A stretch of 64,000 nt of DNA, taken from contig NZ_JAAKZI010000007.1 in NCBI RefSeq assembly GCF_011045165.1, positions 1 to 64,000 on the forward strand, in the 5' to 3' direction. This document shows, piece by piece, positions 28,770 to 60,702 of the stretch; the stretch's first letter is position 1, and the number at the start of each line of letters is the position of its first letter. The notes beneath the pieces were generated by a model. It saw only the letters and a program-made list of their open reading frames with translations. It made no database searches and was not told the origin of the DNA. This stretch comes from Arthrobacter silviterrae. GTDB taxonomy: Bacteria > Actinomycetota > Actinomycetes > Actinomycetales > Micrococcaceae. The position numbers and the translations under genes are program-made.

Positions 28770-28779
28770 GCACCAGCCG

Positions 28780-28824
28780 GAAATTGGCGCCGGTGATCGA
28801 GCTTGTCGCGATCCCGCCAATTTC
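28780..28824. repeat. imperfect palindrome at the 3' side of the AbiEi-like gene
   Basis: GAAATTGGCG pairs with CGCCAATTTC, and inside it GATCG pairs with CGATC with unequal flanks. There is no T run, so it is not a standard terminator. It lies 12 bases from the stop codon of the 28837 gene and may be a damaged member of the long-palindrome class seen at 29961. Confidence 0.5.
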
Positions 28825-28836
28825 GTGTTCGGAGCA

Positions 28837-29841
28837 TCACTTTTGCGGGAGCCCCGCCTCGCGCAGGAGGGCGGGGAACCGTTCCCGGTCCAACATTTCA
28901 GCCCACGTCCAGCGGACAAATCCCACGCCTTGGGCGCGGATTTGGTCCTCCCGCGCCTTCTCCGCCAGCACCCGGTCCTGAATCGAGGCTCCGCCTCCCC
29001 AATCGGCGCGGAGATACTTTCCCTTCCCGTCGAATTCACCCACGAGCGCATGTTCCTCGAACCAAAAGTCCACTTTTGCCTCCCGGCCGTCGCGGAGGGC
29101 AAACGGCTTTTGGAGGATTGGTGCCGGGAATCCCAGCTGGAACATTTTTGCGCGGCTGATCGATTCGCCCGCCGAGCCGGACAGGGCCGACGCGAAGTTG
29201 ACCACGGCAAGAGTCCGATCGCGGGCGGCCCTGCTCTTGAAACTTCCCGCGGCAGACTTCAGCTCCTCCACGGCGAGCGCCGGACCCTGCGGGCCGTCGG
29301 TGAACCACCGCGGTTCACCCGGGGGCGGCGGGGAGCCGGCGGCCGCAAATTGGTTGACAGCATGGCGGGCCTCCGGAATCCTCAGCGCGGAGTCGCAGAC
29401 CGCCACGGCGTAGGGGAAGGACAGCTCCTTGATCAATGCCAGCGTGGTCGTCAGCTTGTCGGTGAGCAGAAACGGGCCGCACTGCACCATGCTGCCCGTC
29501 AGCGATCCGAAGTGGCGAATCACCCCGTTGTTGCTGCGGCCGCTGGTGGCGGTTTCCGTCACCACATGCAGCTTTGACGGCACTCCGACGATCCACAAGC
29601 CCCACAGTCGGGCCGCCGTCGCATGGCAAAATACCGGCTGCCGCGGTGCCAGGGCCTGGAATGCGGCAGCCTGCAGTCCGTACCGCTGGGCCGGGCTTGA
29701 ACCGTTCCAGTCCGCGGATTTCGCATAGACGCCGCGGCGGATACGCACCAGCTCACCCCTGTTCGTGCGCTGGGCGAGCTTCCGGGAATCTTGTCCCACG
29801 AGCCGCAAATCCGCCGGCAGGATCAGGCGTGACGTGTTCAT
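28837..29841 (-). CDS. AbiEi-type HTH domain protein with nuclease-like C-terminus, 334 aa
   Basis: The N-terminal 50 residues match the AbiEi antitoxin winged-helix pattern (QDSRKLAQRTNRGELVRIRRGVY). The middle is helical. The C-terminal 85 residues have a pattern shared with a second protein in this window (59538-60518): VGEFDGxGKY, then KAREDQIRAQG and FVRWTWAEM. That arrangement recalls DUF559/Vsr-like restriction-endonuclease folds, but I cannot confirm catalytic residues. No AbiEii toxin gene is adjacent, so it is not a simple toxin-antitoxin pair. Start ATG 29841 (MNTSRLILPADLRL); the frame stays open upstream through the palindrome at 29961. Both sides carry long palindromes. Confidence 0.75.
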   Translation of the reverse strand: MNTSRLILPADLRLVGQDSRKLAQRTNRGELVRIRRGVYAKSADWNGSSPAQRYGLQAAAFQALAPRQPVFCHATAARLWGLWIVGVPSKLHVVTETATSGRSNNGVIRHFGSLTGSMVQCGPFLLTDKLTTTLALIKELSFPYAVAVCDSALRIPEARHAVNQFAAAGSPPPPGEPRWFTDGPQGPALAVEELKSAAGSFKSRAARDRTLAVVNFASALSGSAGESISRAKMFQLGFPAPILQKPFALRDGREAKVDFWFEEHALVGEFDGKGKYLRADWGGGASIQDRVLAEKAREDQIRAQGVGFVRWTWAEMLDRERFPALLREAGLPQK

Positions 29842-29960: not shown

Positions 29961-30020
29961 TGCCGCCGTTCCCGCATTTTGCCGCAGGTAGACAGGCGGC
30001 AAAATGCGGGAACGGCGGCA
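29961..30020. repeat. 60-bp palindromic element, 25-10-25 geometry (E1)
   Basis: A perfect 25-base inverted repeat (left arm 29961-29985, right arm 29996-30020, arm core CCGTTCCCGCATTTTGCCGC) encloses loop AGGTAGACAG. No T run follows. It lies 120 bases upstream of the AbiEi-like gene and 22 bases beyond the stop of the ABC permease gene. A 56/60 identical copy, inverted, is at 46246-46305. Confidence 0.92.
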
Positions 30021-33472: not shown

Positions 33473-33531
33473 TCGAACCGGCACTTAACGTGGATGTTCC
33501 GCGCAAACATCCACGTTAAATGCCCGTTCGG
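33473..33531. repeat. long palindrome between the two-component operon and the ABC operon
   Basis: An inverted repeat of about 26 bases per arm with three poor pairs encloses a 7-base loop; the inner arm is TTAACGTGGATGTT with its complement AACATCCACGTTAA. There is no T run. Its size (59 bases) is close to that of the 60-bp elements, but the sequence and odd loop differ, so I treat it as a separate element. Confidence 0.75.
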
Positions 33532-44801: not shown

Positions 44802-46241
44802 GTGTCACAAAACGCCACCGATCTTGCCACCCCTGTGCCCGGATCCATCACGGGGGAGGGCTACCAGCGCACCCTCTCGCGGCGTCACGTCACCATGATC
44901 GCCATGGGCGGGGCCATCGGCGTCGGGCTGTTTATGGGGGCCGGCGGCAGGCTCGCCTCCACAGGCCCGGCGCTGATCTTTTCCTACGCCATAGCCGGCA
45001 TCATCGCCTATCTGCTCATGCGGGCACTGGGCGAGCTGGTCATGTACCGGCAGACCTCCGGTTCCTTTGTCTCCTACGCCGGGGAGCTTTTCGGCAAGAA
45101 GGGCGCATACCTCTCCGGCTGGATGTACTTCATCAACTGGGCCATGACGGGGGTGGCGGAGCTGATCGCGATCGGCCTGTACTTCCAGTTCTTCTTCCCC
45201 GGCGTGCCAGTGGAGCTCAGCGCGCTGTGTGCCCTGGTGCTGCTGGTGGCGGTGAACCTGCTCAGCGTGAAGGCGTTCGGCGAGTTCGAGTTCTGGGCGT
45301 CCTGCCTGAAGGTGGCCGCCATCGTGATGTTCCTGGTGGTGGGCACCATCATGGTGGTCACGAACGCGAAGGTGGGCGGCCAGCACGCCACCGTCAGCAA
45401 CCTTTTCCAGGCCGACGGCGGCATGTTCCCCAAGGGCGGGCTGGTCATGATCCTGGTCCTGAACGCCGTGATCTTTGCCTACAATGCCATTGAATTGGTG
45501 GGCATTACGGCCGGTGAAATGGAGAACCCGGAGCGCGAGGTGCCCCGGGCCATCCGTGCCGTGGTGGTGCGCATTGTCATCTTCTACGTAGGCTCGGTCA
45601 CCCTGCTGGCCATGATCATGCCTTCTGACCATTACAAATCCGGTGAGAGCCCCTTCGTTACAGTGTTCGCCTCCATGGGGCTTGACTGGGTGGGCTCCGT
45701 GATGAACTTCGTCGTCATCACTGCCGCACTGTCCTCCTGCAACTCCGGCCTGTACTCGATCGGCCGGATCTTTCGCACCATGGCGAACAACGGCCACGCG
45801 CCGAAATGGCTGACCAAGATGTCATCCCGCCATGTTCCCTACGCGGCCATCCTTGCCATTGCCGCCGTGTACGTGGTGGGCGTGGGCGCCAACGTGTGGC
45901 TGGGCGGATCCCACGCCTTCGACCTTGCCTTGAACACCGCCTCCATCGGCGTGATCTTCACATGGGGCTCAATCTTCGCCAGCCAGATCATGCTCCGGCG
46001 CAAGAAGGGCAAGGTCTCTTCGCTGCCCATGCCCGGCTCTCCCTGGACCAGCTGGGTGGGCCTGGCCGCCCTGCTTGCAATCACCGTGCTCATCGGCTTC
46101 GACACCATGACAGGTCCGGACGGGTCGGTCTTCCACCTGGGCCTGTGGACCCTGTGCGCCATCCCCGTGTTCGCAGCCGTGCTGTGGATCGGCTGGCAGT
46201 TCGTGAAGGACAACGAGCCGGCGAATGAGCTGTTCAGCTGA
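44802..46241 (+). CDS. amino-acid permease, APC superfamily (AnsP/CycA-like), 479 aa
   Basis: About 12 membrane helices. The N-terminal family signature is TLSRRHVTMIAMGGAIGVGLFMGAG-like (about residues 22-46), followed by ALGELVMYRQTSGSFVSYAGE and, in the middle, AYNAIELVGITAGEMENPEREVP. This is the amino-acid transporter (AAT) family pattern of proton symporters for asparagine, serine/alanine/glycine or GABA. The specific substrate cannot be read. GTG 44802 is chosen: AAGGA lies 8 bases before it. A 60-bp palindrome (E2) starts 5 bases after its stop. Confidence 0.9.
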   Translation: MSQNATDLATPVPGSITGEGYQRTLSRRHVTMIAMGGAIGVGLFMGAGGRLASTGPALIFSYAIAGIIAYLLMRALGELVMYRQTSGSFVSYAGELFGKKGAYLSGWMYFINWAMTGVAELIAIGLYFQFFFPGVPVELSALCALVLLVAVNLLSVKAFGEFEFWASCLKVAAIVMFLVVGTIMVVTNAKVGGQHATVSNLFQADGGMFPKGGLVMILVLNAVIFAYNAIELVGITAGEMENPEREVPRAIRAVVVRIVIFYVGSVTLLAMIMPSDHYKSGESPFVTVFASMGLDWVGSVMNFVVITAALSSCNSGLYSIGRIFRTMANNGHAPKWLTKMSSRHVPYAAILAIAAVYVVGVGANVWLGGSHAFDLALNTASIGVIFTWGSIFASQIMLRRKKGKVSSLPMPGSPWTSWVGLAALLAITVLIGFDTMTGPDGSVFHLGLWTLCAIPVFAAVLWIGWQFVKDNEPANELFS

Positions 46242-46245
46242 CATT

Positions 46246-46305
46246 TGCCGCCGCTCCCGCATTTTGCGGCCTGTATACCTGCGGCAAAATGCGGGAGCGG
46301 CGGCA
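46246..46305. repeat. 60-bp palindromic element, 25-10-25 geometry (E2)
   Basis: Arms of 25 bases (46246-46270 and 46281-46305) pair with one mismatch around loop CTGTATACCT. Read in reverse it is 56/60 identical to E1. Relative to E1 one arm pair changed from T-A to C-G on both sides, a compensatory change that keeps the stem. It fills the 72-base gap between convergent genes and is followed by T5 on the plus strand, so here it may also end transcription. Confidence 0.92.
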
Positions 46306-59410: not shown

Positions 59411-59470
59411 GGATGGCGATACGGACTTTCGCCCCTGGTATACCGGGGGCGAATGTCCGTCCCGGCCCCA
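59411..59470. repeat. 60-bp palindromic element (E3)
   Basis: Left arm 59411-59435 and right arm 59446-59470 pair well over the inner 15 bases (ACGGACTTTCGCCCC with one mismatch) around loop TGGTATACCG. The outer right arm is degenerate. The loop core GGTATAC is also seen in E2 and, with one change, E1. The left arm matches the E5 arm at 20 of 25 positions. Confidence 0.8.
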
Positions 59471-59530
59471 GGATGTCGAAACGGCTAATTGAGCCCGATA
59501 GTTCAGGCTCAAATGTCCGGATCGGCATCC
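59471..59530. repeat. 60-bp palindromic element (E4)
   Basis: It directly abuts E3. Arms of 25 bases (59471-59495, 59506-59530) pair at 19 of 25 positions around CGATAGTTCA. The right arm matches that of E5 at 22 of 25 positions. It ends 7 bases from the stop of the AbiEi-like gene. Confidence 0.8.
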
Positions 59531-59537
59531 GCAGCGA

Positions 59538-60518
59538 TCAAACACGTTTCCGGCTCCCGGAACCGGACGGCAGTCCAGCCTTGTGCAGCTTGGCCACCAG
59601 CAGCCGTGGATCCCTGAGGTCGTCCCAGACCCAGCGGACCACCGTGTAGCCGAGCGCCCGCAGCCGGTCCTCCCGTTTCTTCTCTTCCACAACCACCTGC
59701 GACGGCGTTTTGCCTTTGAGGTAGCGCTGGGCAGAATACTTTTCGAAGCCGTCAAATTCACCGATGACCTTGAATTCCTCCCAGTCAAAGTCCGGATAGC
59801 CCACCAGCCCCCAGTCGTCAAAGAAGGGCTTTTGCAGCACGGGCCGGGGGAATCCATTGAGGATCATGATGGCACGGCTTCTGGATTCCCCGGCTGACTG
59901 TGCGCCGGCGTCGGCAACGTCAAGCACCCGCCTGACCCGGTTCTGCTTGGCCATGGAGCCCAGTCTGGCAAGGGATTCACGCATGTGCTCCTCCCCGAAC
60001 GTCAGATTGGTACCGTGGGGCGAGCCGGGGAGAATCTTGCCCTGCAGGAGTTTGTCCATGGCTGGCAGGGCACGCTCGAGGGGCAGGTGGACGGCCAGGT
60101 CGCGGGCCGTCTCCACTGGCCGGGTCACCCTGAGCCCGAACATGGCCCACGGTTCCGGATCCCCTTCGACCGCCATGATCCGCCGCACGCCGTTGCGGCT
60201 CTGCCCGCCCGGAGTTCCGGGCGGGATGACCGTCTGGACCAGGAGGGGCACGCCGAATACGGGAAGCCCCATCACCTCGGCGGCGGATTCCCTGGCAAAA
60301 ACGGGCGGATTGACGGCCAGTTCTTGCACGGCCTGGACCCGAACCCGGTGCTGCTCCCACGGTTTCAGCGCAGCCCACACCTCCGTGGGCAGGTAAAGGC
60401 CCTGCCGCACGCGGACCAATTCCCCTGACGCCGCGCGCCTGGACAGCTGCCGGCTGCCGTGCTCGGAGACGAACTTGCTCGGGGCACTGATGAAGGGCGG
60501 CAATTCAAGCGTGGTCAT
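59538..60518 (-). CDS. AbiEi-like HTH protein with nuclease-like C-terminus, 326 aa
   Basis: A distant paralogue of 28837-29841. The N-terminus has the AbiEi-type winged helix (GSRQLSRRAASGELVRVRQGLYLP), the middle is helical, and the C-terminus holds the shared block VIGEFDGFEKY, then EKKREDRLRALGY and VVRWVWDDLRD. This may be a restriction-endonuclease-like fold of DUF559/Vsr kind; catalysis is not proven. No toxin gene is adjacent. The 60-bp palindromes E3 and E4 lie 7 bases past its stop, and E5 lies 125 bases before its start, nearly the same distance as E1 from the other paralogue. Start ATG 60518 (MTTLELPPFISAP). Confidence 0.75.
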   Translation of the reverse strand: MTTLELPPFISAPSKFVSEHGSRQLSRRAASGELVRVRQGLYLPTEVWAALKPWEQHRVRVQAVQELAVNPPVFARESAAEVMGLPVFGVPLLVQTVIPPGTPGGQSRNGVRRIMAVEGDPEPWAMFGLRVTRPVETARDLAVHLPLERALPAMDKLLQGKILPGSPHGTNLTFGEEHMRESLARLGSMAKQNRVRRVLDVADAGAQSAGESRSRAIMILNGFPRPVLQKPFFDDWGLVGYPDFDWEEFKVIGEFDGFEKYSAQRYLKGKTPSQVVVEEKKREDRLRALGYTVVRWVWDDLRDPRLLVAKLHKAGLPSGSGSRKRV

Positions 60519-60642
60519 GCGTCAATGGTTCCGTGTCCCGGCGGCTTGGAACCGGCCATCGCCCCGAATGTGGGCAACCCCGTCCCCGGCTCCCCTTGTG
60601 GAGGACGGATCGGGGGCTGCCCGAAAGGGGCGGATTGGTCCA

Positions 60643-60702
60643 GGATGTCGAGGTGGACTATTGATCCCGGGATATGAGGATCAAAAGTCCGAATCGGCAT
60701 CC
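60643..60702. repeat. 60-bp palindromic element (E5)
   Basis: Arms of 25 bases (60643-60667, 60678-60702) pair at 20 of 25 positions around CGGGATATGA. The right arm core GTCCGAATCGGCATCC is shared with E4. It lies between the AbiEi-like gene and murA, which are divergent. Confidence 0.85.

What the first reader, a model, noticed from the sequence alone, without database searches (positions are those of the whole stretch)
59411..60702. Both orphan AbiEi-HTH genes are bracketed by 60-bp palindromes: a candidate REP-like element with its own protein
Seen: two distant paralogues (28837-29841 and 59538-60518) share an N-terminal AbiEi-type winged helix and a C-terminal block GEFDGxxKY ... REDxxRAxG ... 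RWxW. The 60.5-kb gene has E3 and E4 from 7 bases past its stop and E5 125 bases before its start. The 29-kb gene has a damaged palindrome 12 bases past its stop and E1 120 bases before its start. The spacing is strikingly alike. Known: REP sequences and RAYT transposases show this kind of layout. Inference: these AbiEi-nuclease-like proteins could recognise or spread such palindromes, or the palindromes could regulate the genes. Weak point: E2 (and the differing palindromes at 33.5 and 56.3 kb) have no such gene beside them.
Basis: partly seen in the sequence, partly recalled or inferred. Interest (0 to 1): 0.78.

Follow-up and report, generated by a model that had tools for sequence, protein, structure and literature searches.

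The report
Nuclease genes with matching dispersed palindromes
A family of bacterial nuclease-like genes sits between pairs of short repeats, mostly palindromes, each gene having its own repeat type that often also lies scattered over the chromosome, which looks like a second version of the known REP/RAYT repeat system built on an unrelated protein.

Summary
The genome (an Arthrobacter relative) has 12 full-length paralogues: an AbiEi-antitoxin-like part fused to a Vsr/DUF559-type nuclease domain. Ten of 12 are bracketed by alike repeats, each gene with a different one. An eleventh, the window's 29-kb gene, has one intact and one decayed palindrome; both are intact in A. wenxiniae. In 1.54 Mb all 5 pairs of alike hairpins 0.5-2.5 kb apart bracket a family member. 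Repeats match within a locus but differ between species as the proteins diverge. The layout recurs across Actinomycetota (16 of 29 loci). Genes mostly keep their place, but one unit is cleanly absent from its relatives' site here and sits elsewhere. Best explanation: a RAYT/REP-like system with an unrelated protein that recognises its own palindrome and drives its spread or renewal. Association and co-divergence are shown; binding, cutting and copying are inferred. No paper seen in ten searches of the held library describes it.

The parts
59538..60518 (-). P0001: AbiEi-like N-terminal part plus Vsr/DUF559-like nuclease domain; cognate of palindrome family F1
   Evidence: the fold was modelled for the paralogue L009
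59471..59530 (.). E4, F1 palindrome 25-10-25, 7 bases past the stop of P0001
   Evidence: same place in A. wenxiniae
59411..59470 (.). E3, imperfect palindrome next to E4 (best register 59416-59465); not in the A. wenxiniae locus, where about 4.6 kb of other DNA lies
60643..60702 (.). E5, F1 palindrome 25-10-25 upstream of P0001
   Evidence: counterpart in A. wenxiniae differs in both arms
28837..29841 (-). P0002: paralogue (34% identical), cognate of palindrome family F53
29961..30020 (.). E1, perfect F53 palindrome upstream of P0002
   Evidence: conserved in A. wenxiniae while the spacer beside it is not
28779..28824 (.). decayed palindrome downstream of P0002 (centre lost); an intact F53 palindrome is at this place in A. 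wenxiniae
46246..46305 (.). E2, solo F53 palindrome, also present in A. wenxiniae
33474..33530 (.). solo F7 palindrome (25-7-25); its gene is on contig C24
56303..56373 (.). solo F9 palindrome (arms 30, loop 11); its gene is on contig C96
   Evidence: the same site in A. wenxiniae holds a palindrome with like ends and a different middle

Best explanation
A REP/RAYT-like system built on an unrelated protein. Each gene codes for an AbiEi-antitoxin-like DNA-binding part fused to a Vsr/I-Bth0305I-type nuclease domain. Shown: genes are bracketed by their own repeat family (mostly 50-65-bp palindromes), most families also have solo, mainly extragenic copies elsewhere, and gene and repeat diverge together. 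Inferred: the AbiEi-like part binds the cognate palindrome as a dimer, the nuclease nicks or cuts it (perhaps as an extruded hairpin during replication), and repair copies cognate palindromes onto diverged ones or into new places. Genes mostly stay put, with rare relocation of the whole unit, while palindromes spread, are rewritten and decay.
Against: No binding, cutting or movement was seen. Some loci fail: L004 and its A. wenxiniae relative L157 have no matching pair, and 12 of 28, 8 of 28, 8 of 28 and 13 of 29 relatives' loci score under 40. Copy numbers are modest (2 to 14 per family in a fifth of the genome). F11 and F12 are direct repeats and F102 is mixed. For short arms F8 and F9 many lone, partly chance, matches were counted. 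Position 250 of the acidic motif is Q or K in 15 of 64 proteins. Some solo sites are old and shared with A. wenxiniae. The own F7 gene is not where its relatives' is, as a transposon cassette would predict. Over all locus pairs the rank correlation of protein and repeat similarity is weak (rho 0.07), most pairs being unrelated.
Confidence: 0.62

Rival explanations
1. Operator sites only: the AbiEi-like part binds the palindromes to control its own gene and, through the solo copies, a set of other genes; the nuclease domain moves nothing.
For: The N-terminal part resembles the AbiEi antitoxin, a family recalled to repress itself by binding inverted repeats. Co-divergence of operator and repressor is expected, and one palindrome lies 119-124 bases upstream of each window gene.
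Against: It does not explain the downstream copy. Family elements are most over-represented between convergent genes (17 of 61 against 1.9% of random places), where promoters are rare, and only 6 of 61 lie between divergent genes. The nuclease core is invariant in 64 of 64.
Confidence: 0.16
2. A transposon-like cassette: the gene between two alike ends moves as a unit and solo palindromes are its remnants or short derivatives.
Against: 11 of 15 P0001 relatives lie at murA or leuD, and 8 of 10 F7 loci share neighbours. Nearly identical gene copies within the genome were not seen: the closest own pair is 66% identical with different repeats. Loss plus an old paralogue would explain the C1 site as well.
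Confidence: 0.1
3. Cellular hairpin sites: the palindromes serve as terminators, barriers or repair sites, and the nuclease trims or resolves them as a house-keeping enzyme.
For: Extragenic placing with an excess between convergent genes, and T or A runs beside 3 of 4 F53 elements; Vsr is a repair nuclease (recalled).
Against: Such runs lie beside only 10 of 61 elements, 0 of 12 for F7. House-keeping does not explain a dozen paralogues, ten with a private repeat bracketing the gene.
Confidence: 0.08

Closest known systems
RAYT (TnpA-REP) with REP/REPIN palindromes
   Same: Gene flanked by two copies of its cognate palindrome, mostly kept in place, palindromes co-diverging with the protein, protein evolving faster than its neighbours, dispersed extragenic copies (Nunvar 2010, PMC2817692: abstract and the section on evolution read; here)
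   Different: The protein has a Vsr-type nuclease domain and an AbiEi-like part, with no tyrosine transposase family among its matches; palindromes are mostly 50-65 bp against the 20-40 bp given for REPs in the abstract of PMC3733652; GTAG at one end only in 6 of 94 elements; lower copy number
Vsr-like homing endonuclease I-Bth0305I (EDxHD family, recalled)
   Different: Both window genes stand free between genes and beside palindromes, not inside an intron, intein or split target
AbiE type IV toxin-antitoxin system (AbiEi antitoxin)
   Different: A nuclease domain is added, and the neighbours of P0001 are leuD and murA
DUF559 / REase_MTES_1575 proteins
   Different: No link to repeats was found for these in the paper searches or in the passages read

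Membership tests
RAYT/REP | gene flanked by two copies of the cognate palindrome | tested here: met
   10 of 12 own paralogues; 16 of 28, 20 of 28, 16 of 29 and 20 of 28 relatives' loci (sets overlap in part)
RAYT/REP | dispersed extragenic copies of the same palindrome | tested here: met
   61 elements in 0.857 Mb, 39 outside crude ORFs of 150 aa or more and 2 at stretch ends, against about 10% of random positions; F7 at 12 places in the whole genome
RAYT/REP | HUH tyrosine transposase (Y1) protein | tested here: not met
   Pfam scan of 11 paralogues at E up to 5 lists nuclease, AbiEi and one unrelated family, no Y1 transposase; the C-terminal domain has the Vsr fold
RAYT/REP | GTAG or like tetranucleotide at one foot of the palindrome | tested here: not met
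   GTAG within 10 bases of one end only in 6 of 94 bracket elements; other tetranucleotides were not tested
RAYT/REP | palindrome and protein co-diverge | tested here: met
Homing endonuclease (EDxHD/Vsr-like) | Vsr-like catalytic fold | tested here: met
   on a predicted model
Homing endonuclease (EDxHD/Vsr-like) | gene inside an intron, intein or interrupted target site | tested here: not met
   in the window both genes lie between other genes, beside palindromes
AbiE toxin-antitoxin | adjacent AbiEii toxin gene | tested here: inconclusive
   P0001's neighbours were named leuD and murA from my reading and used so; the long ORFs beside P0002 and the other paralogues' neighbours were not scanned
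Any of the above | sequence-specific binding and cleavage of the palindrome | not testable with these tools
   needs purified protein

The most novel reading that the evidence does not exclude
A second, convergently evolved REP system: across Actinomycetota, AbiEi-Vsr fusion nucleases each own, renew and spread a private palindrome by a homing-like cut-and-copy of palindromes, so that one genome carries about a dozen independent protein-palindrome pairs, and many orphan AbiEi or DUF559 genes are its drivers rather than defence or toxin-antitoxin genes.
Probability: 0.45. Interest if true: 0.93.

Novelty: new variant of a known kind. Interest (0 to 1): 0.86.

Why it matters
The RAYT tyrosine transposases are the only dedicated REP enzyme class that I know of. 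Here the same layout, dispersal and co-divergence occur with an unrelated nuclease, in Actinomycetota. It offers a role for genes now annotated as orphan AbiEi antitoxins or DUF559 proteins, a natural set of about a dozen protein-target pairs per genome for decoding specificity, and a way to ask directly whether a nuclease can drive short palindromes through a genome.

Tried and rejected
Terminators as the whole answer: T or A runs lie beside only 10 of 61 elements. The terminator scan listed none of the palindromes between 28 and 47 kb, but it accepts loops of 3-8 only, so it could not have listed the 25-10-25 ones. Shared palindrome for both window genes: rejected, two families. Plasmid-borne family: only 5 of 72,556 plasmid records match P0001 at E 1e-5, all under 60% identity. 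A rank correlation over all locus pairs was uninformative (rho 0.07). A one-size hairpin test is weaker than the flank alignment: 7 of 12 own members have a 25-bp hairpin of 17 or more pairs on both sides against 19 of 499 other ORFs, and on at least one side 11 of 12 against 175 of 499, so a single hairpin near a gene means little. Solo palindromes: three solo F1 sites of A. wenxiniae share only the palindrome with three own solo F1 sites (one further 22-base match), and the gap that holds an F7 copy in L020 holds other repeats in G011; no target duplication was found. A half-site count for family Fz (24 of 24 arms paired) is inflated, as the arm matches itself in both senses; about 8 stretches hold it. 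The crude ORF caller mislabels some genes in GC-rich DNA. In one search, 10 of 13 members were in the set: C12, G003 and P0002 dropped out and C11 was mis-started. The highest of the 3000 random intervals score 117-354; the sample includes the paralogues. Foldseek itself was not obtained; the second-look search was. Absence of true RAYT genes in this genome was not tested.

Rows dropped: one search used 29 of the 30 loci (own left out; one, L070, gave no stop); one search used 28 of 30 (two own left out); one search used 7 of 8; one search used 23 of those 29 and 27 of those 28 (partial matches left out) plus L146, L147 and the own 12; one search used 28 of the 29 new loci; one search used 26 of those 28; one search tabled 12 of 15 matches.

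Full report
Observation. E1, E2, E4 and E5 are 25-10-25; E3 is imperfect and best without a loop. The window has hairpins of 20 or more pairs in 25 at 7 places; five first-order random sequences of its size had none above 19.

The genome. A profile of the first 11 paralogues finds 12 full-length members and one weak fragment in the 4.29-Mb genome. I compared the 300 bases (350 for L102) before and after each gene by local alignment. Scores are 57 (P0001), 53, 112, 86, 67, 89, 44, 95, 42 and 61, against 22 for P0002 and 26 for L004. Three thousand random 1-kb intervals have median 22 and 99th percentile 35; the highest, 117-354, come from a sample that includes the paralogues. Among crude ORFs of three genomes, 13 of 1225 non-members and 8 of 10 members reach 40 (Fisher p 7e-14). 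At least two of the 13 overlap a member or a palindrome by their coordinates. Without looking at genes first, I listed 236 hairpins in 1.54 Mb and all alike pairs 0.5-2.5 kb apart: there are five, and all five enclose a member; this strict way finds 5 of the 13 members there.

Own families. The ten bracketed genes have ten different repeats, the highest score between the repeats of two genes being 26. Examples are GGCACTTAACGTGGATGTT for L007 (F7) and GTCAGAAACTGCA for L009 (F9). In the 0.857-Mb sample the families have 2 to 14 copies including the pair at the gene; F1 and F10 showed only that pair there, and F1 solo copies were then found on C37, C41 and C56. The window's palindromes at 33.5 and 56.3 kb are F7 and F9, whose genes lie on contigs C24 and C96, and E2 is F53, the family of P0002. 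A strict F7 pattern has 12 places in the own genome and none in 22 other genus genomes, with zero matches of the reversed control. A strict F53 pattern has 5 places in the own genome, one in G032 and one in G009, none in the other 20. G032 looks by contig coordinates like the A. wenxiniae genome (G033); it holds a P0002 orthologue at 79% identity, and G009 a broken one at 75-76%. The next, G014 at 74%, has a version with a changed base in each arm of the upstream copy.

Arms. F7 arms lie in inverted pairs in 22 of 25 cases and those of a family without a known gene (Fx) in 8 of 9. The picture is weaker elsewhere: F53 8 of 13, F9 10 of 21, Fy 8 of 17, F102 8 of 22 with 8 more in direct pairs, F8 8 of 73 (59 lone; shuffled arm 16 matches). 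F12 and F11 are direct pairs (19 of 25, 6 of 9).

Placing. Of 61 family elements, 39 lie outside crude ORFs of 150 aa or more (17 between convergent genes, 16 tandem, 6 between divergent genes), 12 within 120 bases of an ORF edge, 8 deeper in an ORF and 2 at stretch ends. Random positions give 1.9% convergent, 4.7% tandem, 3.2% divergent and 0.9% ends.

Relatives. Bracketing at 40 or more: 16 of 28 measured loci from a P0001 search, 20 of 28 from an F7-protein search, 20 of 28 of the P0002 group, 16 of 29 loci from 29 genomes across the phylum, and 5 of 6 measured named loci including A. wenxiniae and three mycobacterial loci. The sets overlap in part and should not be added. The family is in 59 of 198 genomes and 50 of 148 genera of the phylum at E 1e-15, the own included; numbers per genome there are lower bounds, as at most 11 candidates were scored.

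Places of the genes. Of 15 P0001 relatives, 11 lie at murA or leuD and four (G016, G011, G001, G006) share another neighbourhood. At murA or leuD the neighbours are 90-96% and 92-96% identical while the proteins are 52-66%, or 83% in A. wenxiniae, so the protein evolves faster. Of 10 F7 loci, 8 share neighbours (one shown by one side only) and two, the own and G017, do not. In the own genome the two neighbours of the relatives' F7 gene lie side by side on C1, 58 bases apart, with no gene of the family and no such palindrome between them. In G003 the same neighbours are about 1.4 kb apart and hold palindrome, gene and palindrome. This is a clean presence-absence site of the whole unit; whether it moved, or was lost there while an old paralogue stayed on C24, is open.

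Concerted change. In 64 proteins with 47 bracketed loci, repeats of two loci are alike (34 or more) in 4 of 4 pairs above 75% protein identity, 5 of 29 at 65-75%, 2 of 52 at 55-65% and 0 of 996 below. Among 26 P0002-group loci all have a 25-bp hairpin of 17 or more pairs within 350 bases on at least one side and 23 on both sides; for 499 other own ORFs these are 175 and 19. Mean arm complementarity is 0.92. Up- and downstream arms of one locus agree at median 0.80 (23 loci) while upstream arms of different species agree at 0.44 (247 pairs; Mann-Whitney p 4e-8, which treats related pairs as independent). So both palindromes of a locus change together, stay palindromic, and diverge between species: a turnover process acts on them.

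A. wenxiniae beside the window. The E4 and E5 counterparts differ from the own ones in both arms. E1 is conserved while the spacer around it is not. The decayed downstream palindrome of P0002 is intact there. The solo site at 56.3 kb holds a palindrome with like ends and a different middle (one case). Three solo F1 sites there share only the palindrome with three own solo sites.

Mechanism. Shown: family-specific bracketing, dispersal, co-divergence and a conserved nuclease core. Inferred: the AbiEi-like part reads the arm, two copies on an inverted pair; the nuclease nicks or cuts; repair from another copy rewrites or adds palindromes. That genes mostly keep their place while palindromes change speaks for a RAYT-like resident enzyme; the C1 site shows that the unit is not always fixed.

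Literature. Ten searches of the held library gave listings. Of papers I saw the abstract and one section of PMC2817692 and passages of PMC12306157, PMC3733652 and PMC3710099. None of what I saw ties DUF559, MTES_1575 or AbiEi proteins to dispersed palindromes; subscription papers are not covered. PMC12306157 tabulates REP-like sequences in an Arthrobacter genome, and its main text has no word beginning with 'transposase' or 'nuclease'. [quoted passage not shown]

Noticed in passing
L026:15760, L042:12638, L049:2463 (family Fz); L027:2753, L038:12860 (Fx); L034:11253, L040:8808, L047:147 (Fy): Dispersed palindrome families with no bracketed family gene found in the own genome; Fx resembles the bracket of locus L144 of G013 by eye, so its gene may be lost here.
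   Followed up: partly
L104-L115: Many F7 copies have C-rich DNA on one side and G-rich DNA on the other beyond the palindrome; meaning unknown.
   Followed up: no
window 46241-46246: A. wenxiniae has about 3.4 kb more DNA directly beside the palindrome E2, the break lying within 5 bases of the palindrome edge.
   Followed up: partly
L017:7351-7410 (C1): Empty site of the F7 unit in the own genome: its relatives' neighbours lie 58 bases apart here, about 1.4 kb apart in G003.
   Followed up: partly
L150, L151, L152: Mycobacterium and Mycolicibacterium homologues are bracketed by another repeat containing GACACGCCG.
   Followed up: no
L004 (C74:89799-90614) and L157: One paralogue line has no matching repeat pair in either species; it may have lost its repeats.
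   Followed up: partly
L011 and L012: Two own paralogues 66% identical carry different repeats (F11, F12), a natural pair for finding specificity residues.
   Followed up: no
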